Assembly (NCBI GenBank): GCA_018398805.1
Contig: JAGFBZ010002127.1
Coordinates: forward strand, 111,234-175,233
Reading direction: 5' to 3'
Source: Hirundichthys speculiger
Lineage: Eukaryota; Chordata; Actinopteri; Beloniformes; Exocoetidae
Length of the DNA stretch: 64,000 bases
Positions within the stretch are counted from its first letter, which is position 1, and every line of letters starts with the position of its first letter. A program made the position numbers and the translations under genes. The notes beneath the pieces are model-generated. The model saw only the letters and a program-made list of their open reading frames with translations, searched no databases and had not been told where the DNA came from. Below, in pieces: positions 22,652 through 56,426 of this stretch.

Positions 22652-22655
22652 CACA

Positions 22656-24546: not shown

Positions 24547-24559
24547 TCTCCCCCCTTTT
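24547..24559 (-). promoter_or_regulatory. Polypurine tract
   Basis: On the minus strand AAAAGGGGGGAGA sits directly against the first base of the 3' LTR. This is the expected plus-strand priming site of an LTR retroelement. Confidence 0.85.
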
Positions 24560-25428
24560 GATCGATGCTTCTGGTTCTTTAGATGGCGTCGATCAATCCA
24601 AAGGTCCCGTCTGAGGAAGGAAGGTCTGAACAGAGTTAGATCAGTGTCTCCCAGTATTCTATCGCTAACAGTCGATCTAGACTCCTACCGTCCTTATAAC
24701 GGTGTTACTATTTCTAAGTGAGCACACTCCGATGGCTCCATATTCTACTCATGTGGTAAGTTTATTTATCGTTAGCAAGAACCTTTTGGCGTGAGGATCT
24801 TTACAGGCATGCAGGACAAGACAGACGCAAAACACACAGTGAGTAATCTGAGCCGAGGCCTCGACCTTTGGCTATGATTGTCTATCCTAACTCTAATTCA
24901 GATTTCCCGGGTATGGGCTAATCTACGATTTTATGACCACACAATAAAGAAGAAAACTTCTAAAAAGAAAAAAAAAAAGAATATAGGTGAAATGGGTATA
25001 TTTCACATCATAAAGTCGACAAAAAAAAGGTGTTCTACTAGTACACATCGGGGAGAGAGAGAAGGAAACTTCTACAAGAGCGAGGGGTTTATGGATGAGC
25101 ACCCCCCTTTTGTCAGCTTCCTGCTGGACTCGTATCAGGCCGCTGGGGTCAGTGTTGTCGCTCTAGTGGGGAATGAGAGCATAGGCGTCGTTAGAAACAT
25201 GTTGGAACAAACGTCAACTTAGAATCACACCAGGTACCCGTCTTCCAACTGGTTGGTAGACCGGTACCCACACGTTCGTGAGTTCGCTCGGACACACTTT
25301 ATTCAAACTTATCCTACGCTGAGGGGTTGAACCAATAATTATCGCACTACCAGTCTACGCTGTCAACTATCGTTACAGGAGTGATAATTGCTCTAATTAT
25401 CTCTGAGAACGAAAGTATATGATTCCTA
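24560..25428 (-). other. Region between pol and purine tract, no env
   Basis: No minus-strand frame of useful length and no signal-peptide or membrane pattern. Contains A-rich tracts (about 24950-24985, 25020-25030). The open frame 24878-25222 is on the wrong strand and featureless. Confidence 0.6.
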
Positions 25429-27813: not shown

Positions 27814-29848
27814 CCTCCTTTTCCGGATGTCCCTTCTCCATTTCCTGTAAAAACAATTTAATGTTTTTCATTTCGGTTTTGGTCAGGTACAGAACCTCTT
27901 GTTCGTCTTCTACGTCGTGCCTAGTGTTTCTCGCATCTGAATGATCTCTCATTGGTGGAGGACGACGAGAAGTGGGCGGTGACCATTCTGACAGATATCT
28001 ACCGTGGTTTTGGTTTCGATATCCGCGGTCCGAATGGTGAGGTACAGGTCGATCGTACCTGTTGTGTGGATACCTTCCCCGTTGGGGGGTCCCGTGAAAT
28101 CCATCACGCCACCGTCGTTCGCTCGGTGGGGATCGTGGTTCACGGTCGGGCCAATAAGACCTGGCGCGGTTGGGTTCGCGATTCGGTCGATTTGGGCTAG
28201 ACGGAGGTGTGTGTCCTCGCCCATGTTGTAGTGCGGACGTAGGAGCAGGGGTTGATCGAGACGCTTTAGGTCTGGTGGCCCCTTCGAGCTCCATGGACAG
28301 GGGTTCTGCACTTATTGCGAATACGGCGTGGTCAGGGGGCTTGGCATGCGACTGTTTCTGCCTCTGGAAACCCAGACAAGCTAGCTCTCGTAGCTGTGCA
28401 ATGCTGGAAGAGCGAGGGTTTGCCATGACTCCGAGATGGTGGCTCGTGGCGGGATGGAGATTTTGAACGAAGAGCGACTTGAAGTTCTGCTCTTCCTCCA
28501 TCCCAGGCTCGTTACGAGTACCAAAATAGGCTTCGAGTAGTCTATAATAGTACTGTTGGGGAGGCTCTTGTCGACCCTGTTTGACCGTAAGCGCTGCTGT
28601 CAGACCACTTTGAGATGCACTGTCGGAGAACTCTCTCTCCAAAGTTTGGCACAACCTGTCGAAATCTCCTTTAACGATTTCAGGTTGGCGATCGACGAAT
28701 CGGCTGACTTCACGATTTGCCGTCAACTTAATCAGATAAATTTTGTCCTGGGCCGAGGCATCAGGGAACCTTTGCAGGTAGAACCTGAGGTCTTCCAAGT
28801 ATGCTCGAGTGTCATTTATCGCTCCAGGAACGGGTTCAAACTTTGGTATGTGTCGGGCTAACCGTTCTAATTCCCTGTCGGGGAGGCCCCGGGGAACCTG
28901 TTGAACCGCTGGGGAGGGCGACTGCCCTCGACGCATTGGGTCTAGGTTTGACTCGAGAGGTTGATACGGGTTCGCGAATGGTGACATGAGTGGCGGTGAA
29001 GGAGGTTCACTACCAGCTCCTGGTACGCGAGGATCAGCCTTTAGTTCGATAGAAAAGGGCGGAGGTGTTCCAGCCGTTCTGGCTGTGAGGGACCTCCTCA
29101 GCTCTTTTCTAGCCGTCTCTAAGTCTTCAGCCATGCTGGTAATTTGGCGGTGGGCCTCTGTGAGCCCACGCTGAGCTTGAGCGAGCTGCGCCTGCAACAG
29201 TAGAACCTGTTCCCGTTTGGCGTCAAGTTGCTTACTGTAAGCGCAGCTCTCTTCCTGCGTTGTTGCAGCTATCCGTCGGACTTCTGCGAGTTCCCGATGG
29301 GACGCTTTACACGCTTCGTCCACGTCCTTGAGGAAGGCGCTTTGAGTGGCGATTGCCTGATCGCGTTCGTTTTTCTCGATTTCTAAGGTTGTGATCGTGG
29401 CTTCGCACTCGTCCATTTTCTTTCTGGCCTCATCCCGCTCGGCTACGAGCTGGGCCATCTGAGCGTTTGTTTCCTCAAGCTTGGACTTGTACTGTTCCAC
29501 TTGGGTTTCAAGAAAAGCGTTGGTTTTCTGCGATTGGGTTAATTTATGCGAACGTGACTCGAGTGAGCTACGTGCCTTTCCTAGCAGAGCTTGTGCTGTT
29601 AGGAACTGGGAAGTTAGCAAAATCGTCATGCTACCTAGCATTTTGGTCAGAGCTTTGTCTTTCGGAGGGTCGGTGAGTGCCTCCGCTATTAAGTCGGACA
29701 GTTTTGAGTCGATTTCGGTGGTGGTTAATCGCTCAATGTGTTCTTGATAGCCAGGATTTAGCTTCCCCGTGAGTTCGGTTACAGCTAATTCCAGGTTATC
29801 AAAGATGGTTCCGTGGCTAGAACCTTCAGAAGGGTCTGCACCTGCCAT
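27773..29848 (-). CDS. Gag-like structural protein
   Basis: 691 residues. Starts MAGADPSE with A at -3 and G at +4, a good eukaryotic context. Residues about 85-255 are a long heptad-rich coiled coil (for example LEETNAQMAQLVAERDEARK). Residues about 325-500 look like a retroelement capsid (LARHIPKFEPVPG, YLEDLRFYLQRFPD, LTVKQGRQEPPQQYYYRLLEA). Residues about 540-650 are Arg/Pro/Gly/Tyr-rich, and there is no CCHC zinc knuckle; nucleic-acid binding by the basic tail is likely but inferred. The Gag would form the particle. The end overlaps the pol-like frame, so expression of the latter would need a +1 shift, re-initiation or splicing. Confidence 0.88.
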   Translation of the reverse strand: MAGADPSEGSSHGTIFDNLELAVTELTGKLNPGYQEHIERLTTTEIDSKLSDLIAEALTDPPKDKALTKMLGSMTILLTSQFLTAQALLGKARSSLESRSHKLTQSQKTNAFLETQVEQYKSKLEETNAQMAQLVAERDEARKKMDECEATITTLEIEKNERDQAIATQSAFLKDVDEACKASHRELAEVRRIAATTQEESCAYSKQLDAKREQVLLLQAQLAQAQRGLTEAHRQITSMAEDLETARKELRRSLTARTAGTPPPFSIELKADPRVPGAGSEPPSPPLMSPFANPYQPLESNLDPMRRGQSPSPAVQQVPRGLPDRELERLARHIPKFEPVPGAINDTRAYLEDLRFYLQRFPDASAQDKIYLIKLTANREVSRFVDRQPEIVKGDFDRLCQTLEREFSDSASQSGLTAALTVKQGRQEPPQQYYYRLLEAYFGTRNEPGMEEEQNFKSLFVQNLHPATSHHLGVMANPRSSSIAQLRELACLGFQRQKQSHAKPPDHAVFAISAEPLSMELEGATRPKASRSTPAPTSALQHGRGHTPPSSPNRPNREPNRARSYWPDREPRSPPSERRWRDGFHGTPQRGRYPHNRYDRPVPHHSDRGYRNQNHGRYLSEWSPPTSRRPPPMRDHSDARNTRHDVEDEQEVLYLTKTEMKNIKLFLQEMEKGHPEKEVDLHSFCRQSRDR

Positions 29849-29929
29849 TTTCTCTGTTGTCTGAGCTTTGTTGGCAGTTTCCTTAACTTCTTTAGCTTCG
29901 TGCCACCTAGCTAGCCGAACGTTGGTTCT

Positions 29930-30540
29930 GGCTTAGCCTAATCTGTTCCACTTAGTTTGGCTTAAATTTGGAAATCTACCTAGCTTCAGTTAGCGCTTAG
30001 CGTACTAGCCTAGCCGCTTAGCCTTGCTAGCTTAGCTTCCTGACTTCCTGAGCCCCAAAACAGCCTAGTTAGCTTCGGTTAGCACTTAGCCTACTAGCCT
30101 AGCTACCTAGCCTAGCCTAGCTCAACTAGCTTAGCTTCCTGACTTCCTGAGCCGCAAACAGCCTAGTTAGCCTTGGTTAGCACTTAGCCTACTAGCCTAG
30201 CTACCTAGCCTAGCCTAACCTAGCTCCACTAGCTTAACCTCTTGGTTTGATTAACAACAAAAACAAAAAAACAAAAAAATAACAAAAATTAGCCTAGTTA
30301 GCCTTGGTTAGCGCTTAGCCTCCTAGCCTAGCTACTTAGCCTAGCCTAACCTAGCTTAACTAGCTACCACTGGCTGAGTTAGCACTTAGCCTACTAGCTT
30401 AATGAACTACAAAACAGCTGAGCTAGCTCGTGTTAGCACCTAGCCTCCTAGCTTAGCCACCTAGCTTAGCCTGACTTAGCTTGATCAGCTATGAGTCGAC
30501 CTGGTTAGCTTCAGTTAGCATTTAGCTGGCTGAGGGCTTA
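29930..30540 (-). repeat. TAGCC-rich degenerate tandem repeat in leader
   Basis: Five to six imperfect copies, about 90-125 bp each, built from GCCTAGCTACCTAGCC- and TTAGCACTTAGCCTAC-type blocks (plus-strand spelling). They lie in the untranslated leader between the 5' LTR and gag. No coding content. Confidence 0.75.
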
Positions 30541-32051
30541 GCTGAGCTTCTCTGACTATCTACGTAGCCTATACTGACCCCTAGTGGTCACTCCTCAGTG
30601 CTGCAGCTCTCTATGGGTCGAATTATCACTCCTGTTTGATAGTCAACCTTATACAGTTCTTTTTAGACTGCTCAATCGAAATATGTTCACGAGAATGTGT
30701 CATTCAATAATCAGAGGTGATCTGCTGTTGTCTTTTCTTGGGACAAAATTATTACATATAGTGCCTTTAGCACCAACTTGGTTATTCTGACAATAACCAC
30801 AAGAGGGTGGCGTTTCTCCACCTGCAAACGTGAGGTTTCGTCACGGAGGGTGTTACCAGTGCGATGACGTCGTCACGTCACGCCCTGACTCCGCCCACCG
30901 TGAGGTTCCCAACTGTGTAACAGGAGTCACTTCACCTCTGGCCCGCGGCCAGAAACGACAATGAGAGCTCACGCGTCGCGTGTGCGCGCAGCTGCTCACA
31001 AAATGACTTTATGTGACACAAACTCAAAAGCGTTAGTTAATTCAATAACTCTTGACACAAACTGAACCCAGCGGGTTCTCAACTTCACTCTGCTGCAGAA
31101 GTCTTATCAAAACTCAGCCTCGGCTGAACACAATACTTTTGCGCGCGTGCTCGTGCCCATGCAGCACGCGCGAGTGGAAGACGTTTAGCTTCTAACTCGG
31201 ATTTTCTTGGGCCTGATCGCCCCTGTCTTCTCCCAGGAAGTGATTACAAGTAGTCCTGCCACACGGACTTTGAATCTCAAGCGGCAGTGCTCAAAAATTT
31301 GTGTTCGCTTTAGAAGTTTCACACTTCAGCTGCGCAAACAGAACTTTCCGCTGTGTGAGCGGATAAAAGCGCGTCAGCGCGTGAACGCGCCTGGCTCGAG
31401 TCGGCTTTGCCAAATGATCACAGATCGTGTCTCCCGACCCCAGTTTCCTCAGAAACTGTTGTCTGGACTTTACTACTGTGACAACAAATAAATAAATTCT
31501 CTCTTCAGACGTTGGTCTGAGAGAACGATAGTTTCTGCAGCTTCTGGGTGCAGAACCGGACGGCCCGCGGGGCGGGGTCGTTCTTCCGTGTTCTCTCACG
31601 GTTACAAAGGAGGATTTTCGTTACCACACTGTGGATTGCTTTCCGTACTTTCGCGAAGCAATATTTCTGTGGCGACAACGCGCAAAAATGAGACAACGAA
31701 TTTCTGGTTAGCTACGCCAGATACGTCGCTCTGCTGAACCTCGTGCACGCGCCGGATTTCAGGAGCGCTCAGAGCAGCTGCGAAATTTCAGGGATACGCT
31801 GAAACTTCGCCTGCTGGGGCCCCTTTTCAACAAAATCTTAAACATGCATGCATAACATTAGAACGTAATCAACACTGAGTCCAGCGACTCTACCAGCGGC
31901 CTCTCGGGCACGCGCTTCGTAGCTGCAACTTTGTCTCTGTGTCTGCTCACAGGAGAAAAAGCGGGGGGGTTGGTCTGAGCGCAGCTGCGCGCTTCAGAGC
32001 AAACTTAGATCAGCGGACTTTCAGATTGATTTTCCACAACGTCGCAAGTCG
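30541..32051 (-). other. GC-rich part of the retroelement leader
   Basis: No gene. CpG-rich with structure potential: CGCGCGTGCT (31142-31151) pairs exactly with AGCACGCGCG (31163-31172) across an 11-base loop. In a retroelement leader such hairpins can act in dimerisation or packaging, but that is only a possibility here. Confidence 0.5.
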
Positions 32052-32069
32052 TCCCATCTGGCCGTGCCA
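32052..32069 (-). promoter_or_regulatory. Candidate tRNA primer-binding site
   Basis: Six bases after the 5' LTR the minus strand reads TGGCACGGCCAGATGGGA. It begins TGG as expected, and from memory resembles the complement of an arginine tRNA 3' end with one irregularity in the middle. The tRNA assignment is tentative. Confidence 0.4.
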
Positions 32070-32075
32070 ATAAGA

Positions 32076-33962
32076 TGTAGGGGTACTCGTGTGACTTTAT
32101 TAATATTTTAATAATTACCTAGGGTGCCACCGGCTTTTGTTAAAAAGACGGAAAACTTAAAAGAACAAATAAGTCACAATTTATAGTGGGTTCTTGACGA
32201 GTTGGATTGGCCATGGAAAATCAATCATCAGAGTCGCTAATACGTTGTACAACATTTATTTAGACAGAGACAAGAACACAAAACATATAAGACATTCATA
32301 TATATATAAACAGGCACATCAACATCGCGAATTCTTCATATTTGGCTATAGCGCATGACAGGAAGTGACGATAGAGAGAAGAAGGAAGGAAGAAAGTCAT
32401 AACAAAAAAGATGGCGGGTACGAACGGGTTGCTAACAGCTAATCTGTTATCAAAGTGAACAAATTAATAAAGAGGGGCAATTCTCGAACTAATTAGCTGC
32501 CGAATAATGGGGAAGTGTGGTCCGGACGTGGTCCGTGACGCACGGACCGGTCGGAACCGTCAACACTGGGAGACACCACATCTGATTCTCTGTCAGCCTT
32601 ACCCTGGGCGAGTCTGGCGGCTTACTGTCGTCGGCGCATCGGTTTGGCACGGTTCGCAGTGGCGTCCTCCGGGAACCGTGTCTGGTCGATGGCTCTCTTT
32701 GAAGTCCCTGGAGTCAGGTCTCCGGACGTAGCGCGTGACTCGGCGGGTCGTACCGCTTTCTCCCGTCTGGCAGGCGAGTTGGTCCCGTGGCCTCTGACTT
32801 CGGTCGACAGGAACCGGCAGTTAAAAGTTCGATTGCCCGTCGAAAAAACTGACGTGAAGGCTTACAAAAGAAAACTTGTTCTCAACTTACAACTAACGTT
32901 TGTTAGTTGCAATTATGCAGTGATCGTTCTATTACAGTCGATGGGGCACGACTATAAAGCTTTTGTAAAAATGAGGGCAAAAAAAAAGGTGTCGAAACAA
33001 AGTAACAACTTAAGCAAATTAAGATGGATTTCAGAGTCTTTATCGTATCACAAAGTTTCAAAGAAAATAATATAAAAAAAAAGGAGGGAAAGTTTCAGAA
33101 TTAAGAGAGGAAGAAGCAAGGCGTCAGAGAGAAAAGACAAAAGTGTAAGAGCTAAGAGAATAGAGCGAAGAGCGTAAGAAAACAGACAAAGGAGTCTCGT
33201 CTTATTTGTACTGATGAATATTAATGAGCGTTTATGCAAAACAAGAGGGTTTGGTCGATGCTTCGTCCAATCAGAGACAGGGATTTTCCCGCAGAAAATC
33301 TGGAGCATTGCATTCTGGGAGATGAAGTTTTCATCCTCTGTCTCCTCGGCATGCGTAGTCCAACAAAGTTTTAAACACATTTAAACCGTTACTATTATCA
33401 GGGTGTGTAAAACATCACAAACACAAATATCACAAGTTATGTCACAAGATAATAATAACTTTTAACCTTTCATTTAACAAACTGTCCTGTGGAAGATCAG
33501 GTTATAAAATGACAGGAATTTGAAACAGAAAAATCATTTCACTCCACTTCCCAGTCTCTCTCTTTTTTTGGTGTTCGTGAAATGTTATTTGTCTTGAGTT
33601 ATAACATTTTAAGGAAATCATAGTAGTTTTGTTTGTAAGAAAATTGTTTATATAAACTTTTCATCGTCTGTTCAGAAGACGAGAGGTGGGGGTTGTACAA
33701 AACTTCCCGGGGTGCGCTCTCCTGCACCAGCACGTCTGATAGATACCAGACCTCCTTTAGGAGTTGGTGTTTGCAAAATACCAACTGTCATGAAATGATG
33801 TTTAATGGCTTCTTAAGGTGGTCTCAGGGGAGAGTCACCATGGCAACGTGCATTCTTGAATTTTATGGCTTACGGTGCTCGGGTCCGGTTGGTACGGGGT
33901 GAAAGTTTTCAGGGCTGCAGAGGCTCCAATCAACAGAATAAAATCCGAAGAGGGATCCTACA
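32076..33962 (-). repeat. 5' LTR of the retroelement
   Basis: 1887 bp; the promoter-side copy, since gag lies to its left on the minus strand. Same termini and same AATAAA position (complement of 32096-32101) as the other LTR. Its outer edge abuts CACA at 33963-33966, the right target duplication. Confidence 0.93.
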
Positions 33963-43440: not shown

Positions 43441-43616
43441 GCCTCAATGTCCCTTGTGGTAGTTGCAATGATAAAGACAAAACACAGAAGAAAAAAATTG
43501 TTATCGAAACTAATAAATTGCACCTCTTGCAAAACAGGACTGATCAGATCAGCTCTGATATAACAGAAGAATTAACCAAGTTCCTTCCATCAAGGTGACA
43601 GTTTTATTACCCCTTT

Positions 43617-43700
43617 TTGACCTTTCATGACCTTATGACCTTTCATGACCTTTATGACCCTTTAATGACCCTTTAATGATTTTATGACTTTATGACCCTC
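43617..43700 (+). repeat. Subterminal ATGACC tandem repeat (left)
   Basis: Six to eight imperfect copies of CTTTCATGACC/CTTTAATGACC, about 50 bp inside the element end. Mirrored at 56288-56368 in the right arm. Short tandem repeats next to the termini are a plausible protein-binding site, which is inference. Confidence 0.75.
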
Positions 43701-44261
43701 ACCAGATCTGTTTCCGGGCACTTTTATTGTTTCCGGGCAGTTTTATTGCTTATCTTGCCCCCACATCTGTTTTAGTGTGTTAAACCTACCCCACCCCTCT
43801 TACCCAAAACTTTGTCACTTTACAGTTCCAACTGAACCTTCTGGCTAACCACTGCACTGCTGTGCAAAACAAATCTGTGATATCATTAAGAGCTTCACAT
43901 GGAGGAGAGTTCACATGGTTTTTTTATTCTGATGTGCTGTGTACATTTTGATACAAACTTCAGTGTATGTTTTTATATTTGACTTTTAATGAATTTGTTA
44001 AGATTCTGAACAATTTTTCTGTATAGATTACCGGCAATGATAATCTTTTTTTCATCAACAAAATTAAATCTTCACATCTTATAAGACAATACTAAGTACC
44101 TCAGCAACAGACCAATGTTTTTTTTTTTTCAGAAACCTGACCTGTTTCATGTGTTACACATTTAAGTAACAGTTAAAATGATCCATCCAGTTTCTTCTGC
44201 TCATCTTTTCTCTCAGTACTTCTGCATGTCTTTCTCTTCAATCACCCACCACACACCCACA

Positions 44262-44300
<39 letters not shown>

Positions 44301-45968
44301 ACAGACAAACTATTTCTCCTCTCCTCTCCTCCTCTTACCCCCACCACCACCCCACACACTGACAGATTTTTATATTTGACTTTTAGTGAATTTGCTAAGA
44401 TTCTGAACAATTTTTTGTATAGATTACCCACAAATTCAGTACTGGACAGTACAGTGGAGCAGTTTTCTCCAACAGACTAGTTCAGGACAGATACAGGAAG
44501 TTCATTCCTACCAACAGCAATTAAACTGTTAAACCAGTCACCTCTGGCTGGTAGAGAGCTCTCAGCTCCCTTTGACATTTAACCCTCCTGTTATGTCCGT
44601 TTCTCAGGAACATCAATCATGTTCCTGGGTCTATTTGACCCGGGCATGTTTGATACTCCAAAAGTGTCTAAAAAACTAAACACTCCCAATAAACACTGTT
44701 TATATCTTATGATTAACTCCATCACTAATGATTTCAATCAACATTTAGTGCAGTTATCCTTTACCTCTCACACATCATGATTCAATGAAAAATAATTTAC
44801 TTGTTTGTTTGGTTTTTTTTAAATGAATGTTAAAACATTTTTAAATGTGCATTAGAAAGACCTATCTTAAAAATACAATAGTTCAATCTGACATTGACTT
44901 TTTTTGTGATTATTCTATTTTTTAACTTTTCTTTTTGGGGTGATGTTGATAAATTAACACAAGAAAACCTTAGCTTCACGGTCAAAGTGACCAGCTGAAT
45001 TAAAATCAAAATCTACTGGATTTACAATGAAAGAAAACTTAAGATTTGTTTTTGAACCAGAAAGATCTCCTTCCAAATGACAAATGCGTTGTAGGCTGAT
45101 CTATCAGTCATGTTTATAAAGATGAGCAGCATCCAGCTTGCAGTCATTCGTTTGGTGCTTTTAGACCCCATGACTTTGTCTAAATGATCCATCTCCCCAC
45201 TTTGGTGGCATTGTAGGGATCATATTTGGTTTCTGATCTTCTCTTGAGCTGATTTCAAAAATGTTATGTTTGAGTTACATAACCAATCTTGAATTACATA
45301 GCTGAGTTATGTAGTCAAGAAAAAACAAATCTAAATTTCTGACATGGTGTCTTGCTCTATATTGCAGTTAGTCACAGAATTTTTTAAGCACTTTAATTCT
45401 CACTATTCACTAATATCTTCTCCCCCCTCCCTGTTTCCTGTGTGCCTGTGTTCCTGGGTAAACAGTCACAGTTTTACGGACCATCCTCACGGATCTGTTT
45501 ATCCCAATTGCAAACTGGTAGTTTTATTGTGTTAAACATTTAAAGTGTATCAGTTAATACGATGCATCCACACTGCAAATTATTTGGTTCTTACCAGGAA
45601 AAAAACTTAAATTTAGAAGCGTTAGATATTTTTCTTGTTTTAATAATTACTTTTTTATTTTAAGTCTCAGTATAATATTATATCGAGTAATATTTTACTT
45701 TTCTGTCTCAACCAGGGAGAGAATCCTAAAATGAGACAATTAACACTTAAAATAAATGTTTTTTACGTTTTTTCCTCCTCCTCCTCATCAAAATAAATCT
45801 TGTTTTAAGATTCAATAACCAATTATACCTTTCTTAAATCTAGAAACAAGTGTTCTCTACAATCTTAATTTAAGAAATCTTACCAAGATAAATTATCTTG
45901 CTGCATGGACAGATTTTTCCACTCGTTTTGAGTACCTTTTTCCTTAGTTACAGTGTTTTTAATCTTGT

Positions 45969-46151
45969 TTGAAGCGTGGATTACCCACAAATTCAGTACT
46001 GGACAGACAGCGGAGCAGTTTCTCCAGCAGAATAGTTCAGCTTCGCTGTCACAAGGACAGATACAGGAAGTCATTCCTGCCAACAGCAATTAAACTGTTT
46101 AACCAGTCACCTCTGGCTGGTAGAGAGCTCTCAGCTCCCTTTGACATTTAA
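45969..46151 (+). pseudogene. LINE-type C-terminal tail fragment (left arm)
   Basis: The frame reads LPTNSVLDRQRSS, then VQLRCHKDRYRKSFLPTAIK and LFNQSPLAGREL. The RYRKSFLPTAIKLFN part resembles the tail that follows the reverse transcriptase in many fish non-LTR retrotransposons. A shortened relative lies at about 44424-44580 in the same arm. No reverse transcriptase is attached. Family assignment is tentative. Confidence 0.35.
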
Positions 46152-46312
46152 CTTGGACTAAGGTTTACACTATTCCACTTTAGTTGTTTAAGTTAAACTA
46201 AGCTCAATATGTCACTTGATCACACAGTCACTTTCATTGTACTGCATTGCACTGTAATATACCATATACCATCTTCTTGCACACATTTTGTTTATAATTT
46301 TGTTTATAATAC

Positions 46313-46317
<5 letters not shown>

Positions 46318-46360
<43 letters not shown>
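46318..46360. repeat. (TA)n microsatellite, left arm
   Basis: Uninterrupted alternating TA. The right-arm counterpart (53240-53297) is longer, one of the clearest length differences between the arms. Confidence 0.9.
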
Positions 46361-46362
<2 letters not shown>

Positions 46363-46908
46363 ATTTACAAGAGTACTTTCAAACTTTTTGTTTTGTCTTG
46401 GTGGTGGTCACTTTATACTTCAATGTTGCTACTTGTAACGACAGAATTAAAGACAACGTTCGAATAAGCTCCAGTCAAGTTTTATGTTCTATGAATCAAT
46501 CAATACCAATAGGATGTATCTATCCATAAGGGTTTTTAACACTATTGTCAATGACAGATTTTTATATTTGACTTTTAATGAATTTGCTAAGATTCTGAAC
46601 AATTTTTCTGTATAGATTACCCGCAAATGATAATCTTTTTCATCAAAATTAAATCTTCACTCTTATAAGACAATACTAAGTACCTCAGGAACAGAGCAAT
46701 GTTTTTTCTGAAACCTGTTTTTCTTAACATGCCTACTTGTCTCGTGTTTTTTTCTAAACACTGCTGTTAGTTTTTAATCTCATGTTTTTAAAAACACTGT
46801 TGTTCACTCACGTTGTCTCAGTACCGCTATCAATGAACTCTTGTTGAGTCTATCTGCTGTGAAAAAGGCTTCACAACCCCCAATCACCACGCTTCCTACA
46901 GTTTCCAT

Positions 46909-47213
46909 TGGACCGTCTTAGCCACACCCCCCCACCACAAAAACCAACTTTCTGAACCATCGATAGTCCCATTGGTCCGCCTTAGCCACAGCCACCACAA
47001 AAACCAACTTTCTGGACCATCAATAGTCCCATTGGTCTGCCTTAGCCACACCCACCACACAAAAACCAACTTACTGAACCATCGATAGTCCCCATTGGTC
47101 CGCCTTAGCCACACCCCACCACAAAAACCAACTTTCTGAACCATTGATAGTCCCATTGGTCCGCCTTAGCCACACCCACCACAAAAACCAACTTTCTGAA
47201 CCACCGATGACTG
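46909..47213 (-). repeat. 60-bp minisatellite, left arm
   Basis: About five units; on the minus strand each holds GTTGGTTTTTGTGGTGGGTG and GGACCAATGGGACTAT. Because 60 is a multiple of three, the array gives long spurious frames with a 20-residue period. Confidence 0.85.
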
Positions 47214-47936
47214 AGAGGGAAAAACACAAAAACAACAACAACAAAAAAAAGAGAAGAAACCTCTTTTTTCTTAACATGAAAAAGTGTACATGCCTACTTG
47301 AGTGTGCTCCTCTTTTTTTACCGTCAGGTTAAAAACTTGTTCTAACATGCTGTGTACATTTTGATACAAACTTCAGTGTATGTTTTTATATTTGACTTTT
47401 AATGAATTTGCTAAGATTCTGAACTATTTTTGTATAGATTACCACAAATGATAATCTTTTTTCATCGGAATTTAAATCTCCACTTTATAACACAATACTA
47501 ATTCCCTCAGGCACAATCCAATAGTTTCTCCGTGCTACATACCATGCTGCTGCGGAGTACTTTGTCCTGGCTCTTTTTCAATTCGGAGTGCGGTCGCTTT
47601 CGTACTTTGCTCGCTTTATCTATGGTAGCCTGGTGTGAAAAACACCTTCCTCTTCCTTTGCCTTTCGTAACTGAAATAACGCTCTAGTGACGTGAAAAAC
47701 TCTTTCCTTCTAGACCACCCCTTGACCACACCCCCTTTCAGACCCTAACCAATCCCATTTGTTAGGGTTTCACCACAGCCACTCGCCACACCTTTACCAC
47801 TCCCACTTGCTACGCCTTCACCACTCCCACTTACGAAAACTGTTTAAAGAGAGGGTCTTTTTCTTCCTCCCAGACCATTGAAACTCTACAGCCTTTTTAA
47901 AGTCCTGAAGCCATTTGAAGACCCAAGGAAGAAACC

Positions 47937-48608
47937 ATGCTGGCAATGACTCGTCTGAATGCTCGCAGGTGTTTAATCATGACCCCTGAGTACATCCCAG
48001 GGGTGTCGGCGGACAAGATGATCTCGCACGAGCCTACGCTGAAGCCTATACCCGAGTTGGTGGCTGAATGTCCCGCGGGTCAGGAGCCCGAGTCTCCGAT
48101 TCTGGAGATGGAGGGATCAACCCAGACCTTGTCTCCTCTTCCTGATACCCCGGTGAGTCCAACCCCTCCTTCACTCGTGGATGAGAGTACGGTGGACGGG
48201 TTGATGTCAAGTTTGATCCTGAAACTGGTGAAAGCTGCATTCAACTATCTGCTCAAACTCCTCGTCAACAAGATCCGGAAAGAGGAATGCTACGGTTGCA
48301 CAGTTGACCATCCAAGTCAGAGACAGCATGAGTGTTTGGACATCCTTGAAGAAGACTTCTTCGAAAGCAATGCTCGGATGAGAGAGATTAGAGAACGACT
48401 CCTTAACCGTAATTTCATTCCAGGCGTCAACCAATTCTTGAACATGTATAACATCCATGTGGAGGAATCGAGAGTCTCAAAAATTGTAGAAACTCTGATG
48501 ACCAACATACGTTACCCTGATGAGGAGGAGGATGACAACTTTCTGAGCGGAGACTCCTTCAGAAACAACCTTGAGACTCTGGGTAGCTTCTGGGAGTGTG
48601 TTGAATAG
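47937..48608 (+). CDS. Uncharacterised Polinton-type protein, left copy
   Basis: 223 codons, ATG context ACCATGC. The N-terminal third is Pro/Glu/Ser-rich and looks disordered. Residues about 85-112 form an amphipathic stretch (LILKLVKAAFNYLLKLLVNK) followed at about 118-132 by CYGCTVDHPSQRQHECL, a Cys/His cluster that could bind zinc. The last 90 residues are helical and acidic at the end (RYPDEEEDD). I recall similar C-x2-C...HPSQ...H-x-C proteins recurring in Polinton and adintovirus-like elements, with no function known to me. It is open, and identical in protein sequence to the copy in the other arm, which suggests recent duplication, gene conversion or selection. A translated neighbour is the integrase fragment 0.8 kb downstream. 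Confidence 0.75.
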   Translation: MLAMTRLNARRCLIMTPEYIPGVSADKMISHEPTLKPIPELVAECPAGQEPESPILEMEGSTQTLSPLPDTPVSPTPPSLVDESTVDGLMSSLILKLVKAAFNYLLKLLVNKIRKEECYGCTVDHPSQRQHECLDILEEDFFESNARMREIRERLLNRNFIPGVNQFLNMYNIHVEESRVSKIVETLMTNIRYPDEEEDDNFLSGDSFRNNLETLGSFWECVE

Positions 48609-49396
48609 TTTTCTACATGCCAGTACTACTGTTTTTTATATTTTAACGATACCCAAGAGAAAAAAAAAAACATACAAAAAAAGAAGGAACCTCTTTTTCA
48701 TAATTGTGATATTAAAAATTTATTTCAGGCCTTCTGAGGCCTTCCTGACCTGGAGAAAAATCACTGACAGGGCTGGATGACATTTGATTAACTGTGATTA
48801 AACTCGTCCAAGACGAGGCCACTGTGTTGATATGATATTAAGGCGTCAACTTGTCTGCAGTTTGACGTGTGTCCCAATAAGATCAAGATTGTGTTGTTCA
48901 GATATGGATGCAACTGGTTTCCTTAAATTACTGCTGGCCCTGAGTAACGTGGGCATTCTGTGTTGGTTCTGGCTCTCGTGAACATCGAAAATAAATCTCT
49001 GTGCACCTGCGTCAGTTTCTCTGTGCCTTAATTAACAGCTGAATTGATACTACACCACTGCATAGTATTACCAGCCTTCACAGGTAAATAAGATCCTGAA
49101 TTTTTACATAACAATAATAAGAAAAAGTGTACATGTTTTAAAGTTTTTAAAAACATTGTATTTAGTCATGTGTGATTTTTTTTAATTTACACATGTTTTT
49201 ATGTTGACCCATGTTTTAAAATACTGTTGTTGTGTTTTTTTGTATTTACTCATGTCAGTTTTATACAGTTTTTTCTATATAGCGTTGTTAGTTTTTTTCT
49301 ATATAGTGTTATTAGTTTCAAAACACAGTTGTTTACTCATACTGATGCTGAATAAAAACTTCAACTAAGTACTTTAGTCCTCATTTGTGTGTCAGC
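48609..49396 (+). other. Non-coding part of left arm before integrase start
   Basis: No gene. Mirrored at 50218-51004 with a handful of substitutions, several of them C/T changes at CpG, for example GCGTCAG versus GCGTTAG near 49008. Confidence 0.5.
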
Positions 49397-49951
49397 ATGT
49401 CAGTGAAACACTTGATGAAAAGAGTTTATTACGATCCAGCCCATCCGGGTGGTTTCGGTGGTGGAGAACGACTCCGTTGTGGGCTGCAAGATGAAATGGG
49501 TGAGTCAGTCAAGCTGGAAAATGTGAAAGATTTTTTATCCGAACAAGATTCTTATACTCTTCACAAACCAGCCCGGATACATTTTCCGAGAAACAGAGTT
49601 TTTGTCTCACGTCCTTTATTCCAATTCCAAGCTGACCTATGTGATATGCAAGCTCTAGCTCAGCATAACGATGGGTATAATTATTTATTAACGGTCATAG
49701 ATGTATTTTCCAAGAAGGCCTACGTACGGGCCTTGAAGAGAAAAAACTGCTGCCCACCGGTGTATAAACTCAAAGATTACGATGGGTGGGGTGTATTCAT
49801 TCTTGAATTTCCTCTTATGAACAATCGTTGAACTTTTACCGTACAAGTTTTGGAGCACTTGTGAGGTATTTTCCTTATTGACCTCTATAGGGGTCATTTT
49901 AATGCTACTATGATAACTATGATTATAGCTTTTTACCAAGTCCTGTAACAC
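49397..49951 (+). pseudogene. Polinton integrase, scrambled into three pieces
   Basis: Piece a (49397-49741, plus): MSVKHLMKRVYYDPAHPGGF, then SYTLHKPARIHFPRNRV, then FQADLCDMQALAQHNDGYNY and VIDVFSKKAYVRALKRK. This is the N-terminal part of a Polinton integrase, including the first catalytic aspartate (QADL). Piece c (about 49750-49800, plus): PPVYKLKDYDG, a motif from the C-terminal chromo-like end. Piece b (49951 back to about 49835, minus): LVKSYNHSYHSSIKMTPIEV and NLYGK, from just after the third catalytic residue. The second Asp and the Glu are missing. The order a+, c+, b- shows a deletion and an inversion at the centre of the palindrome. The first 10 codons lie in the left arm; in the right arm the same start runs into a stop after 19 codons. 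Confidence 0.8.
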
Positions 49952-50188
49952 ATCGAGGCAGGGCCGGAGTGGGCCCTTTTCTCAGTCCGGGAATTTAATT
50001 CAAATTCAGGCCACTCTGATACGGAGGACAAATTTGAGTACATAGAAAAAGATAAAACAAAAACAAAAAAAAAATTCTCTCACAATGCCTTTTATTTTAT
50101 TTAGATTATGGCATACAATTATTTACGCCCCTTTAACAATGTATAATCGAAATTCAGGCTACAAATAAAGCGTGATGAAGCGTTTGGC
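49952..50188. other. Rest of the central spacer
   Basis: Unpaired DNA between integrase piece b and the right arm, with a GGCCGGAGTGGGCCC stretch near 49965 that may come from another repeat. No gene. Confidence 0.4.
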
Positions 50189-51004
50189 AACTCTTTTCAT
50201 CAAGTGTTTCACTGACATGCTGACACACAAATGAGGACTAAAGTACTTAGTTGAAGTTTTTATTCAGCATCAGTATGAGTAAACAACTGTGTTTTGAAAC
50301 TAATAACACTATATAGAAAAAAACTAACAACGCTATATAGAAAAAACTGTATAAAACTGACATGAGTAAATACAAAAAAACACAACAACAGTATTTTAAA
50401 ACATGGGTCAACATAAAAACATGTGTAAATTAAAAAAAATCACACATGACTAAATACAATGTTTTTAAAAACTTTAAAACATGTACACTTTTTCTTATTA
50501 TTGTTATGTAAAAATTCAGGATCTTATTTACCTGTGAAGGCTGGTAATACTATGCAGTGGTGTAGTATCAATTCAGCTGTTAATTAAGGCACAGAGAAAC
50601 TAACGCAGGTGCACAGAGATTTATTTTCGATGTTCACGAGAGCCAGAACCAACACAGAATGCCCACGTTACTCAGGGCCAGCAGTAATTTAAGGAAACCA
50701 GTTGCATCCATATCTGAACAACACAATCTTGATCTTATTGGGACACACGTCAAACTGCAGACAAGTTGACGCTTAATATCATATCAACACAGTGGCCTCG
50801 TCTTGGACGAGTTTAATCACAGTTAATCAAATGTCATCCAGCCCTGTCAGTGATTTTTCTCCAGGTCAGGAAGGCCTCAGAAGGCCTGAAATCAATTTTT
50901 AATATCACAATTATGAAAAAGAGGTTCCTTCTTTTTTTGTATGTTTTTTTTTTCTCTTGGGTATCGTTAAAATATAAAAAACAGTAGTACTGGCATGTAG
51001 AAAA

Positions 51005-51676
51005 CTATTCAACACACTCCCAGAAGCTACCCAGAGTCTCAAGGTTGTTTCTGAAGGAGTCTCCGCTCAGAAAGTTGTCATCCTCCTCCTCATCAGGGTA
51101 ACGTATGTTGGTCATCAGAGTTTCTACAATTTTTGAGACTCTCGATTCCTCCACATGGATGTTATACATGTTCAAGAATTGGTTGACGCCTGGAATGAAA
51201 TTACGGTTAAGGAGTCGTTCTCTAATCTCTCTCATCCGAGCATTGCTTTCGAAGAAGTCTTCTTCAAGGATGTCCAAACACTCATGCTGTCTCTGACTTG
51301 GATGGTCAACTGTGCAACCGTAGCATTCCTCTTTCCGGATCTTGTTGACGAGGAGTTTGAGCAGATAGTTGAATGCAGCTTTCACCAGTTTCAGGATCAA
51401 ACTTGACATCAACCCGTCCACCGTACTCTCATCCACGAGTGAAGGAGGGGTTGGACTCACCGGGGTATCAGGAAGAGGAGACAAGGTCTGGGTTGATCCC
51501 TCCATCTCCAGAATCGGAGACTCGGGCTCCTGACCCGCGGGACATTCAGCCACCAACTCGGGTATAGGCTTCAGCGTAGGCTCGTGCGAGATCATCTTGT
51601 CCGCCGACACCCCTGGGATGTACTCAGGGGTCATGATTAAACACCTGCGAGCGTTCAGACGAGTCATTGCCAGCAT
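51005..51676 (-). CDS. Uncharacterised Polinton-type protein, right copy
   Basis: Mirror copy of 47937-48608: same 223 residues with no amino-acid change, same upstream context. It lies in the same position in the right arm, so the two genes point toward the centre of the element. Function unknown; see the left copy for features. Confidence 0.75.
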   Translation of the reverse strand: MLAMTRLNARRCLIMTPEYIPGVSADKMISHEPTLKPIPELVAECPAGQEPESPILEMEGSTQTLSPLPDTPVSPTPPSLVDESTVDGLMSSLILKLVKAAFNYLLKLLVNKIRKEECYGCTVDHPSQRQHECLDILEEDFFESNARMREIRERLLNRNFIPGVNQFLNMYNIHVEESRVSKIVETLMTNIRYPDEEEDDNFLSGDSFRNNLETLGSFWECVE

Positions 51677-52406
51677 GGTTTCTTCCTTGGGTCTTCAAAT
51701 GGCTTCAGGACTTTAAAAAGGCTGTAGAGTTTCAATGGTCTGGGAGGAAGAAAAAGACCCTCTCTTTAAACAGTTTTCGTAAGTTGGAGTGGTGAAGGCG
51801 TAGCAAGTGGGAGTGGTAAAGGTGTGGCGAGTGGCTGTGGTGAAACCCTAACAAATGGGATTGGTTAGGGTCTGAAAGGGGGTGTGGTCAAGGGGTGGTC
51901 TAGAAGGAAAGAGTTTTTCACGTCACTAGAGCGTTATTTCAGTTACGAAAGGCAAAGGAAGAGGAAGGTGTTTTTCACACCAGGCTACCATAGATAAAGC
52001 GAGCAAAGTACGAAAGCGACCGCACTCCGAATTGAAAAAGAGCCAGGACAAAGTACTCCGCAGCAGCATGGTATGTAGCACGGAGAAACTATTGGATTGT
52101 GCCTGAGGGAATTAGTATTGTGTTATAAAGTGGAGATTTAAATTCCGATGAAAAAAGATTATCATTTGTGGTAATCTATACAAAAATAGTTCAGAATCTT
52201 AGCAAATTCATTAAAAGTCAAATATAAAAACATACACTGAAGTTTGTATCAAAATGTACACAGCATGTTAGAACAAGTTTTTAACCTGACGGTAAAAAAA
52301 AGAGGAGCACACTCAAGTAGGCATGTACACTTTTTCATGTTAAGAAAAAAGAGGTTTCTTCTCTTTTTTTTGTTGTTGTTGTTTTTTGTTTTTCCCTCTC
52401 AGTCAT

Positions 52407-52706
52407 CGGTGGTTCAGAAAGTTGGTTTTTGTGGTGGGTGTGGCTAAGGCGGACCAATGGGACTATCAATGGTTCAGAAAGTTGGTTTTTGTGGTGGGTG
52501 TGGCTAAGGCGGACCAATGGGACTATCGATGGTTCAGTAAGTTGGTTTTTGTGGTGGGTGTGGCTAAGGCAGACCAATGGGACTATTGATGGTCCAGAAA
52601 GTTGGTTTTTGTGGTGGCTGTGGCTAAGGCGGACCAATGGGACTATCGATGGTTCAGAAAGTTGGTTTTTGTGGTGGGTGTGGCTAAGACGGTCCAATGG
52701 AACTGT
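52407..52706 (+). repeat. 60-bp minisatellite, right arm
   Basis: Five units in exact 60-bp phase, mirror of 46909-47213. The left-arm array contains small indels that this one lacks. Confidence 0.88.
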
Positions 52707-53237
52707 AGGAAGCGTGGTGATTGGGGGTTGTGAAGCCTTTTTCACAGCAGATAGACTCAACAAGAGTTCATTGATAGCGGTACTGAGACAACGTGAGTGA
52801 ACAACAGTGTTTTTAAAAACATGAGATTAAAAACTAACAGCAGTGTTTAGAAAAAAACACGAGACAAGTAGGCATGTTAAGAAAAACAGGTTTCAGAAAA
52901 AACATTGCTCTGTTCCTGAGGTACTTAGTATTGTCTTATAAGATGAAAGATTAATTTTGATGAAAAAGATTATCATTTGCGGGTAATCTATACAGAAAAA
53001 TTGTTCAGAATCTTAGCAAATTCATTAAAAGTCAAATATAAAAATCTGTCATTGACAATAGTGTTAAAAACCCTTATGGATAGATACATCCTATTGGTAT
53101 TGATTGATTCATAGAACATAAACTTGACTGGAGCTTATTCGAACGTGTCTTTAATTCTGTCGTTACAGTAGCAACATTGAAGTATAAAGTGACCACCACC
53201 AAGACAAAACAAAAAGTTTGAAAGTACTCTTGTAAAT

Positions 53238-53239
<2 letters not shown>

Positions 53240-53297
<58 letters not shown>
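53240..53297. repeat. (TA)n microsatellite, right arm
   Basis: Right-arm counterpart of 46318-46360, longer by more than ten bases. Confidence 0.9.
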
Positions 53298-53301
<4 letters not shown>

Positions 53302-53465
53302 GTATTATAAAAACAAAATTATAAACAAAATGTGTGCAAGAAGATGGTATATGGTATATTACAGTGCAATGCAGTACAATGAAAAGTGACTGTGTGATCA
53401 AGTGACATATTGAGCTTAGTTTAACTTAAACAACTAAAGTGGAATAGTGTAAACCTTAGTCCAAG

Positions 53466-53648
53466 TTAAATGTCAAAGGGAGCTGAGAGCTCTCTACCAG
53501 CCAGAGGTGACTGGTTAAACAGTTTAATTGCTGTTGGCAGGAATGACTTCCTGTATCTGTCCTTGTGACAGCGAAGCTGAACTATTCTGCTGGAGAAACT
53601 GCTCCGCTGTCTGTCCAGTACTGAATTTGTGGGTAATCCACGCTTCAA
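53466..53648 (-). pseudogene. LINE-type C-terminal tail fragment (right arm)
   Basis: Mirror copy of 45969-46151 with the same 60-codon frame. A shortened relative lies at about 55035-55180. Same caveat on family. Confidence 0.35.
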
Positions 53649-55691
53649 ACAAGATTAAAAACACTGTAACTAAGGAAAAAGGTACTCAAAACGAGTGGAA
53701 AAATCTGTCCATGCAGCAAGATAATTTATCTTGGTAAGATTTCTTAAATTAAGATTGTAGAGAACACTTGTTTCTAGATTTAAGAAAGGTATAATTGGTT
53801 ATTGAATCTTAAAACAAGATTTATTTTGATGAGGAGGAGGAGGAAAAAACGTAAAACATCTTATTTTAAGTGTTAATTGTCTCATTTTAGGATTCTCTCC
53901 CTGGTTGAGACAGAAAAGTAAAATATTACTCGATATAATATTATACTGAGACTTAAAATAAAAAAGTAATTATTAAAACAAGAAAAATATCTAACGCTTC
54001 TAAATTTAAGTTTTTTTCCTGGTAAGAACCAAATAATTTGCAGTGTGGATGCATCGTATTAACTGATACACTTTAAATGTTTAACACAATAAAACTACCA
54101 GTTTGCAATTGGGATAAACAGATCCGTGAGGATGGTCCGTAAAACTGTGACTGTTTACCCAGGAACACAGGCACACAGGAAACAGGGAGGGGGGAGAAGA
54201 TATTAGTGAATAGTGAGAATTAAAGTGCTTAAAAAATTCTGTGACTAACTGCAATATAGAGCAAGACACCATGTCAGAAATTTAGATTTGTTTTTTTCTT
54301 GACTACATAACTCAGCTATGTAATTCAAGATTGGTTATGTAACTCAAACATAACATTTTTTAAATCAGCTCAAGAGAAGATCAGAAACCAAATATGATCC
54401 CTACAATGCCACCAAAGTGGGGAGATGGATCATTTAGACAAAGTCATGGGGTCTAAAAGCACCAAACGAATGACTGCAAGCTGGATGCTGCTCATCTTTA
54501 TAACATGACTGATAGATCAGCCTACAACGCATTTGTCATTTGGAAGGAGATCTTTCTGGTTCAAAAACAAATCTTAAGTTTTCTTTCATTGTAAATCCAG
54601 TAGATTTTGATTTTAATTCAGCTGGTCACTTTGACCGTGAAGCTAAGGTTTTCTTGTGTTAATTTATCAACATCACCCCAAAAAGAAAAGTTAAAAAATA
54701 GAATAATCACAAAAAAAGTCAATGTCAGATTGAACTATTGTATTTTTAAGATAGGTCTTTCTAATGCACATTTAAAAATGTTTTAACATTCATTTAAAAA
54801 AACCAAACAAACAAGTAAATTATTTTTCATTGAATCATGATGTGTGAGAGGTAAAGGATAACTGCACTAAATGTTGATTGAAATCATTAGTGATGGAGTT
54901 AATCATAAGATATAAACAGTGTTTATTGGGAGTGTTTAGTTTTTTAGACACTTTTGGAGTATCAAACATGCCCGGGTCAAATAGACCCAGGAACATGATT
55001 GATGTTCCTGAGAAACGGACATAACAGGAGGGTTAAATGTCAAAGGGAGCTGAGAGCTCTCTACCAGCCAGAGGTGACTGGTTTAACAGTTTAATTGCTG
55101 TTGGTAGGAATGACTTCCTGTATCTGTCCTGAACTAGTCTGTTGGAGAAACTGCTCCACTGTCTGTCCAGTACTGAATTTGTGGGTAATCTATACAAAAA
55201 TTGTTCAGAATCTTAGCAAATTCACTAAAAGTCAAATATAAAAATCTGTCAGTGTGTGGGGTGGTGGTGGGGGGTAAGAGGAGGAGAGGAGAGGAGAAAT
55301 AGTTTGTCTGTGTGTGTGTGTGGGGTGTGTGCGTGTGGGTGGGTGGGTGTGGTGGTCGGGGGATTGAAGAGAAAGACATGCAGAAGTACTGAGAGAAAAG
55401 ATGAGCAGAAGAAACTGGATGGATCATTTTAACTGTTACTTAAATGTTTAACACATGAAACAGGTCAGGTCTCTGAAAAAAAAAACATTGGTCTGTTGCT
55501 GAGGTACTTAGTATTGTCTTATAAGAGTGAAGATTTAATTTTGATGAAAAAGATTATCATTTGCCGGTAATCTATACAGAAAAATTGTTCAGAATCTTAG
55601 CAAATTCACTAAAAGTCAAATATAAAAATCTGTCAGTGTGTGGGGTGGTGGGGGTAAGAGGAGGAGAGGAGAGGAGAAATAGTTTGTCTGT

Positions 55692-55730
<39 letters not shown>

Positions 55731-56287
55731 TGTGCGTGTGGGTGGGTGATTGAAGAGAAAGACATGCAGAAGTACTGAGAGAAAAGATGAGCAGAAGAAA
55801 CTGGATGGATCATTTTAACTGTTACTTAAATGTGTAACACATGAAACAGGTCAGGTTTCTGAAAAAAAAAAACATTGGTCTGTTGCTGAGGTACTTAGTA
55901 TTGTCTTATAAGAGTGAAGATTTAATTTTGATGAAAAAGATTATCATTTGCCGGTAATCTATACAGAAAAATTGTTCAGAATCTTAACAAATTCATTAAA
56001 AGTCAAATATAAAAACATACACTGAAGTTTGTATCAAAATGTACACAGCACATCAGAATAAAAAAACCATGTGAACTCTCCTCCATGTGAAGCTCTTAAT
56101 GATATCACAAATTTGTTTTGCACAGCAGTGCAGTGGTTAGCCAGAAGGTTCAGTTGGAACTGTAAAGTGACAAAGTTTTGGGTAAGAGGGGTGGGGTAGG
56201 TTTAACACACTAAAACAGATGTGGGGGCAAGATAAGCAATAAAACTGCCCGGAAACAATAAAAGTGCCCGGAAACAGATCTGGTGAG

Positions 56288-56368
56288 GGTCATAAAGTCA
56301 TAAAATCATTAAAGGGTCATTAAAGGGTCATAAAGGTCATGAAAGGTCATAAGGTCATGAAAGGTCAA
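56288..56368 (-). repeat. Subterminal ATGACC tandem repeat (right)
   Basis: Reverse-complement counterpart of the left subterminal array (GGTCATAAAG/GGTCATTAAAG on the plus strand), same distance from the element end. Confidence 0.75.
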
Positions 56369-56426
56369 AAAGGGGTAATAAAACTGTCACCTTGATGGAA
56401 GGAACTTGGTTAATTCTTCTTATAAC

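What the first reader, a model, noticed from the sequence alone, without database searches (positions are those of the whole stretch)
43565..56420. A 12.9-kb Polinton-type element that is one giant palindrome
AG...CT termini, a perfect 6-bp duplication TATAAC, and Polinton integrase pieces identify the element, yet it consists of two ~6-kb inverted arms around a 762-bp centre. Polinton terminal repeats known to me are usually a few hundred to about a thousand bases; here nearly the whole element is terminal repeat. A transcript across it would form very long double-stranded RNA, and the single strand could snap back. One route is template switching during protein-primed, strand-displacing replication of a full-length Polinton. 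That mechanism is inference; the structure and duplication are read directly. The intact flanking duplication suggests the palindrome was inserted as such, or arose by change inside an inserted copy.
Basis: partly seen in the sequence, partly recalled or inferred. Interest (0 to 1): 0.92.

Follow-up and report, generated by a model that had tools for sequence, protein, structure and literature searches.

The report
Virus-like transposon doubled into a palindrome
In what is likely a fish genome, a 12.9-kb virus-like Maverick (Polinton) element consists of one of its ends written twice, as two mirror-image arms of about 6 kb meeting in a wrecked integrase gene; it was likely made when copying DNA snapped back on itself and then likely inserted whole.

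Summary
Window 43565-56420 (12,856 bp) has two inverted arms (5,862 and 6,232 bp; 14 mismatches in 5,831 aligned columns) around a 762-bp centre, flanked by a perfect TATAAC duplication, with ends AGAAGA...TCTTCT. The largest terminal repeat reported for intact vertebrate Mavericks (134 elements) is 1,447 bp, mean 402 (PMC8097293); these arms are about four times that. Each arm runs terminus, accessory region with an intact 223-aa ORF of unknown family, start of integrase. The centre is not an ordinary loop: it holds integrase residues 1-117 and about 288-299 on the + strand, 195-248 on the - strand, and 222 bp of unknown filler. Two inverted integrase copies thus met here and lost different parts. 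The right arm has a 381-bp unit that the left arm apparently lost by one exchange. Best reading: an inverted duplication of the integrase-side end, made before insertion by snap-back during protein-primed replication (inferred). An assembly error is not excluded: no reads were available, and the excess of indels points to consensus error. It is a foldback-type variant of a known family, with precedents in AAV snapback genomes and Foldback/Galileo elements.

The parts
43559..43564 (.). Left copy of the 6-bp target site duplication TATAAC
   Evidence: Read directly
43565..49426 (+). Left arm, 5,862 bp: terminus AGAAGA, accessory region, first 10 codons of integrase
   Evidence: Self-BLAST and arm alignment
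43970..44435 (+). Left-arm single unit, apparently a recombinant of the two tandem units of the right arm (12 sites match unit 1, then 2 sites match unit 2)
   Evidence: 8 of the 12 sites lie in a CA-rich stretch
46905..47208 (+). 60-bp tandem array, about 5 copies, inside the left arm (mirrored at 52405-52704)
47937..48608 (+). Intact 223-aa accessory ORF of unknown family, pointing to the centre
   Evidence: 0 of 300 Markov-generated arms has an ORF this long; no Pfam hit and no homologue at the thresholds used
49397..49747 (+). Integrase residues 1-117 (left copy); the first 30 bp lie in the arm
   Evidence: tblastn, 73.7% identity to P0121, E 1e-56; 30 of 30 queries hit this block
49427..50188 (.). 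762-bp centre that does not pair with itself
49751..49786 (+). Integrase residues about 288-299, in frame with 1-117 (about 170 residues missing between)
   Evidence: 11 of 11 residues identical to P0123, E 0.013; 21 of 30 queries give a separate hit here at E <= 0.1
49802..49966 (-). Integrase residues 195-248 (right copy, opposite strand)
   Evidence: 69% identity to P0121, E 1.5e-15; 30 of 30 queries hit this block
49967..50188 (.). 222-bp filler of unknown origin between integrase residue 195 and codon 10 of the right copy
   Evidence: Matches elsewhere in the window are short and mostly low-complexity
50189..56420 (-). Right arm, 6,232 bp, reverse complement of the left arm; its inner end (50218-50189) is integrase codons 1-10
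51005..51676 (-). Second copy of the 223-aa accessory ORF, identical translation
55177..56015 (-). 387-bp tandem duplication in the right arm, one unit more than the left arm
56421..56426 (.). Right copy of the target site duplication TATAAC

Best explanation
This is a 12,856-bp Maverick/Polinton-type insertion, flanked by a perfect 6-bp duplication, that consists of two inverted copies of the integrase-side end meeting in a broken integrase gene, and it most likely arose by snap-back copying during protein-primed replication and then likely inserted as a ready-made palindrome. Shown: the arms, the duplication, the terminal motif, and the order terminus - accessory gene - integrase start in both arms. 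Also shown: the centre keeps integrase 1-117 and about 288-299 from one copy, and 195-248 plus the first 10 codons from the other. Inferred: a displaced or truncated strand carrying one origin folded back inside the integrase gene and was copied to its own end, giving a molecule with an origin at both ends. Integrase supplied by an intact relative would have inserted it. Each copy then lost different integrase stretches next to the fold, which would have made the centre asymmetric and easier to maintain. Today its integrase gene is broken, and no ORF long enough or similar enough to be an intact polymerase or capsid gene was found. It would therefore depend on helpers, but it is predicted to keep the end sequences they act on.
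For: Perfect TATAAC on both sides with different outer flanks. Terminal AGAAGA, a trinucleotide written twice like the (AGT)2 motif of vertebrate Mavericks. Both arms enter the integrase gene from its start, and the centre holds pieces of two inverted integrase copies, as expected if the inverted join lay inside or beyond integrase. Arms are nearly identical: 14 of 5,831 columns differ (0.24%; about 7 isolated changes by my reading), close to 3 of 1,882 (0.16%) for the LTR pair at 22655/32075 in this window. So the arms are recent or homogenised. The total length, 12,856 bp, lies within the 12,723-24,620 bp of intact vertebrate Mavericks. AAV populations carry symmetric and asymmetric snapback genomes made of one end (PMC8235507, passages).
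Against: No second copy, donor or read was available; nine requests to search the window's own genome did not complete. Repair after insertion would leave the same duplication. The filler is unexplained. No inverted repeat that could mark a fold point survives in the centre (10- and 12-base scan). The AAV authors favour end joining for their snapback genomes. The two internal integrase deletions need extra steps. Arm differences are indel-heavy (30 gaps, 14 mismatches), as in the LTR pair (6 and 3), so part of the divergence is probably consensus error.
Confidence: 0.48

Rival explanations
1. Change after insertion: a normal full-length element was inserted with its duplication; a break inside it was repaired by copying inward from the other terminal repeat, and the ends were joined in the integrase gene with filler.
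For: Gives identical arms, an intact duplication and a patchwork centre with unknown filler. Terminal repeat growth by recruiting neighbouring sequence is described for Galileo (PMC3573991, passages).
Against: Needs nearly 6 kb of repair copying and loss of the other genes; no polymerase, ATPase or capsid family was matched by the 52 of 60 stop-to-stop ORFs of the left arm and centre that were scanned.
Confidence: 0.18
2. Two broken integrase-side ends of replicating molecules were end-joined head to head before insertion, without any snap-back.
For: Unequal ends (integrase about 299 against 248) and 222 bp of filler suit end joining; the AAV authors prefer this route for their snapback genomes.
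Against: Two different donors would be expected to differ more than 14 of 5,831 columns unless clonal.
Confidence: 0.16
3. Assembly artefact: reads of one arm were used to build the other.
For: Arms are nearly identical and many differences look like consensus error; the LTR pair shows the same 2:1 excess of indels. No reads were available.
Against: Different unique flanks carry the same 6-bp duplication; the arms differ by a 381-bp unit whose left version looks like a single-exchange product (12 sites then 2; a collapsed repeat in assembly could mimic this); the centre has asymmetric losses and filler that a mirrored read would not create.
Confidence: 0.13
4. Two elements inserted near each other in opposite orientation and recombined or lost the DNA between.
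For: Gives inverted copies, as seen.
Against: The outer 6-bp duplications would then be expected to differ; a match by chance is about 1 in 4,096 (my estimate). Arm identity is also too high for independent insertions unless very young.
Confidence: 0.05

Closest known systems
Vertebrate Maverick/Polinton elements (PMC8097293; section 7 read, other passages)
   Same: 6-bp duplication, AG...CT ends, closely related integrase with the accessory region outside it and the gene pointing inward, total size in range
   Different: Inverted repeat about 6 kb instead of 46-1,447 bp; both ends are the integrase end; integrase broken; no polymerase, ATPase, protease or capsid gene detected; end motif (AGA)2, not among the three motifs named there
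AAV snapback (defective interfering) genomes (PMC8235507, passages read)
   Same: One end of a linear genome duplicated as an inverted copy, symmetric or asymmetric, able to replicate with helper
   Different: Single-stranded parvovirus with hairpin ends, not protein-primed (recalled); there seen as packaged molecules, here as a chromosomal insertion
Foldback and Galileo 2-TIR elements of Drosophila (PMC3573991 passages; PMC4079207 search listing only)
   Same: Element made almost wholly of long, internally repetitive inverted repeats; in Galileo the number of tandem units can differ between the two arms
   Different: Other transposase families; Galileo repeats in D. mojavensis up to about 1.26 kb; 7-bp duplications
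Adenovirus incomplete-particle and symmetric (SYREC) genomes (recalled; the 1976 paper was not held)
   Same: Protein-primed linear DNA with one end duplicated on both sides (recalled)
   Different: Not integrated by an integrase; content recalled, not checked here

Membership tests
Maverick/Polinton | 6-bp target site duplication | tested here: met
   TATAAC on both sides
Maverick/Polinton | AG...CT ends with a repeated end motif | tested here: met
   AGAAGA...TCTTCT; the published motifs are (AGT)2, (AG)3 and (AC)3A, so the exact motif is not on that list
Maverick/Polinton | Maverick-type integrase | tested here: met
   Three integrase blocks, best E 1e-56, but the gene is broken and scrambled; among the queries P0165 is named integrase of a minnow adintovirus
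Maverick/Polinton | Protein-primed polymerase, ATPase, protease, capsid genes | tested here: not met
   No such Pfam hit in 52 of 60 stop-to-stop ORFs of >=45 aa from the left arm and centre; so a derivative, not a complete element
Maverick/Polinton | Terminal inverted repeats of 46-1,447 bp (published range, not strictly defining) | tested here: not met
   5,862 and 6,232 bp
Foldback-type element (architecture) | Element almost wholly made of long inverted repeats with a short middle | tested here: met
   12,094 of 12,856 bp are arms
Foldback (FB) or Galileo family | FB/Galileo transposase lineage and 7- to 9-bp duplication (7 bp; 9 bp recalled) | tested here: not met
   6-bp duplication and Maverick integrase
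Defective interfering / snapback genome | Replicates with helper and lowers helper output | not testable with these tools
   No expression, copy number or helper data

The most novel reading that the evidence does not exclude
A germline-borne defective-interfering Maverick: a self-complementary snap-back genome that kept both replication ends, entered the chromosome through a helper's integrase, and now acts as an inherited brake on its own virus-like family, by competing for polymerase and integrase and by yielding double-stranded RNA against the accessory and integrase genes.
Probability: 0.1. Interest if true: 0.9.

Novelty: new variant of a known kind. Interest (0 to 1): 0.62.

Why it matters
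Mavericks are thought to replicate as protein-primed linear DNA, but their particles have not been observed (abstract of PMC8097293). An inserted molecule with the anatomy of a snap-back replication product would be a fossil of that hidden stage. It would also extend to this group the kind of defective genome known from AAV and, from memory, adenovirus. It gives a concrete search image (one end written twice, centre in integrase, 6-bp duplication) for asking whether such products recur, spread, and limit their parents.

Tried and rejected
Searches that gave nothing: the 223-aa protein had no homologue at E <= 0.01 among about 5.8 billion proteins (253 candidates), no Pfam family at E <= 10 and no viral contigs relative. 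Its single-sequence structure was too weak to use (mean pLDDT 47.5), so no fold search was made. P0006 found no relative in viral contigs. The integrase alignment A1 found one distant viral locus, L001 at 28%, and none in genome contigs; L001 was not used further. Rfam found nothing at its gathering scores. Searching 52 ORFs of the left arm and centre against PHROGs gave nothing at E <= 0.01.

The filler 49967-50188 has only short, mostly low-complexity matches elsewhere in the window. The resemblance of a CAGGGCCGG stretch at its edge to the end of a hAT-type element was my recollection and is not supported; the 15-base motif occurs once in the window at up to 3 mismatches. No 10- or 12-base inverted repeat lies inside the centre once pairs between the arm ends are filtered out; one 9-base pair was found. 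So a surviving fold point was not found.

Considered and dropped: that the arms' divergence dates the palindrome. The indel excess, shared with the LTR pair, suggests that consensus error contributes, so I give no age. That overlapping transcripts certainly form double-stranded RNA: AATAAA/ATTAAA motifs lie between the 223-aa ORF and the centre in both arms, so transcripts may end before the fold.

Literature on palindromic or foldback Polintons: searches. Where more papers matched than were listed I saw only the list (15 of 44, 20 of 23, 20 of 32, 12 of 18; in full 1 of 1, 0, and 7 of 7), with titles and abstract starts. Passages were seen in PMC8097293, PMC3573991, PMC12910113, PMC6431247 and PMC4642659. 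None showed such an element. PMC4642659 mentions long terminal repeats in Polinton-like viruses without a length in the passages seen. The library holds open-licence papers only.
Full report
Observation. Self-BLAST and a global alignment give a left arm 43565-49426 (5,862 bp), a right arm 50189-56420 read in reverse (6,232 bp) and a 762-bp centre. Of 5,831 aligned columns 14 differ, with 30 gaps. TATAAC stands immediately outside both ends, and the ends read AGAAGAATTAACC and GGTTAATTCTTCT. Joined at one copy of TATAAC, the two host flanks give a plain empty site; no uninterrupted relative of it was found in the window.

Comparison with normal elements. In intact vertebrate Mavericks (134 elements) the terminal inverted repeats span 46 to 1,447 bp (mean 402, SD 276) and the elements 12,723 to 24,620 bp. 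The genes generally lie in two modules facing the centre, most elements have accessory regions outside them, and the end motifs named are (AGT)2, (AG)3 and (AC)3A (PMC8097293, section 7 read in full). Here the repeats are about 6 kb and the total is 12,856 bp, near the lower limit of that range. The end motif is (AGA)2, of the same style but not on that list. Each arm reads terminus, accessory region, integrase start, which is the integrase side of a normal element.

The centre. Thirty related integrases (P0121-P0149 and P0165; those with an organism name are from fish) were compared with the window by tblastn. The + strand carries residues 1-117 (49397-49747; 30 of 30 queries) and, in the same frame, residues about 288-299 (49751-49786; 21 of 30 queries as a separate hit at E <= 0.1; 11 of 11 residues identical to P0123, E 0.013, weak on its own). 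The - strand carries residues 195-248 (49966-49802; 30 of 30 queries). The right arm itself ends after integrase codon 10 (50218-50189). Residues about 118-194, 249-287 and beyond about 299 gave no clear block; a few queries extend a block by some residues. Between codon 10 and residue 195 of the right copy lie 222 bp of unknown filler. The simplest reading is two integrase copies meeting tail to tail, the left running at least to residue 299 and the right at least to 248, after which each lost different parts. A one-step join with several template switches would also fit. No integrase hit lies elsewhere in the window (0 of 82 hits at E <= 0.1).

Arm differences. The right arm holds a 387-bp tandem duplication (55177-56015). 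The left arm has one unit. At the 14 ungapped columns where the two right units differ, the left unit matches unit 1 at the first 12 and unit 2 at the last 2. Eight of those 12 lie in a CA-rich stretch, so they are less secure. The pattern is the product of one exchange between the units, which suggests that the left arm lost a unit rather than the right arm gaining one; collapse of a repeat in assembly could mimic it. Since the units differ from each other more than the whole arms do, the tandem duplication is probably older than the palindrome, or the arms have since been homogenised.

Control for assembly noise. The two long terminal repeats of a neighbouring LTR element (22655-24546 and 32075-33962) differ at 3 of 1,882 columns with 6 gaps, the same 2:1 excess of gaps over mismatches as the arms. 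Residual consensus error therefore probably contributes, and the small indels are not evidence of age. The arms are about as alike as this LTR pair.

Contents. The only long ORF of the arm outside repeats encodes 223 aa, identical in both arms. The longest ATG ORF in 300 Markov-generated arms was 176 aa, so it is unlikely to be chance. It has no relative by these searches. Of 60 stop-to-stop ORFs of at least 45 aa listed for the left arm and centre, 52 were scanned with Pfam: eight families matched one ORF each at E 0.017 to 0.07, among them the integrase core at 0.028; none is a polymerase, ATPase, protease or capsid family. No PHROGs family reached E 0.01. Shorter decayed pieces and the mirrored right arm were not scanned.

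Host. The named integrase relatives at the top of the lists come from fish (for example Lucifuga dentata and Scophthalmus maximus). The window's own organism was not identified.

Mechanism. Protein-primed, strand-displacing replication (established for adenovirus, from general knowledge; inferred for Mavericks from their polymerase) leaves long single strands with one origin. If such a strand breaks or folds inside the integrase gene and primes on itself, the product is a hairpin that the next round opens into an inverted dimer with an origin at both ends. An integrase from an intact relative would see two normal ends and insert it with a 6-bp duplication. AAV populations hold one-ended snapback genomes, symmetric and asymmetric, and the authors suggest both double-stranded RNA production and regulation of the parent (PMC8235507, passages). 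They favour end joining for its origin, which I keep as a rival. Asymmetric losses next to the fold are what I would expect if a perfect centre is unstable; that is inference.

Alternatives. Repair of an already inserted element by copying in from the other terminal repeat gives the same picture and cannot be excluded without an empty-site survey or a second copy. An artefact is made less likely by the matched duplication on different flanks, the exchange product in one arm and the asymmetric centre, but only reads can settle it. Two independent insertions would not be expected to share the outer duplication.

Verdict. This is a real and unusual architecture on present evidence: a foldback-type derivative of a Maverick. 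The family and the foldback shape are each known. Their combination was not found in the searches made here, which cover open-licence papers only and were mostly seen as listings.

Noticed in passing
22655-33962: LTR retroelement with 1.9-kb near-identical LTRs (3 of 1,882 columns differ); its minus-strand ORF 25429-27867 shows weak protease, H2C2 and integrase matches but no reverse transcriptase match, so it may be a derivative that lost it.
   Followed up: partly
19169-20238: 59-bp minisatellite, 18 copies, 97% matches.
   Followed up: no
46905-47208 and 52405-52704: 60-bp tandem array of about five units inside both arms, and a ~150-bp unit dispersed at several places in each arm; sub-repeats reminiscent of Galileo arms.
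   Followed up: partly
47937-48608 and 51005-51676: Intact 223-aa ORF with no detectable relative and a Cys/His-containing stretch; a candidate new accessory gene of fish Mavericks.
   Followed up: partly
49967-50188: 222-bp filler of unknown origin next to the right integrase remnant.
   Followed up: partly
4438-4794: ORF with a Cys-rich stretch that I recall as typical of the C-terminal end of piggyBac transposases; not tested.
   Followed up: no
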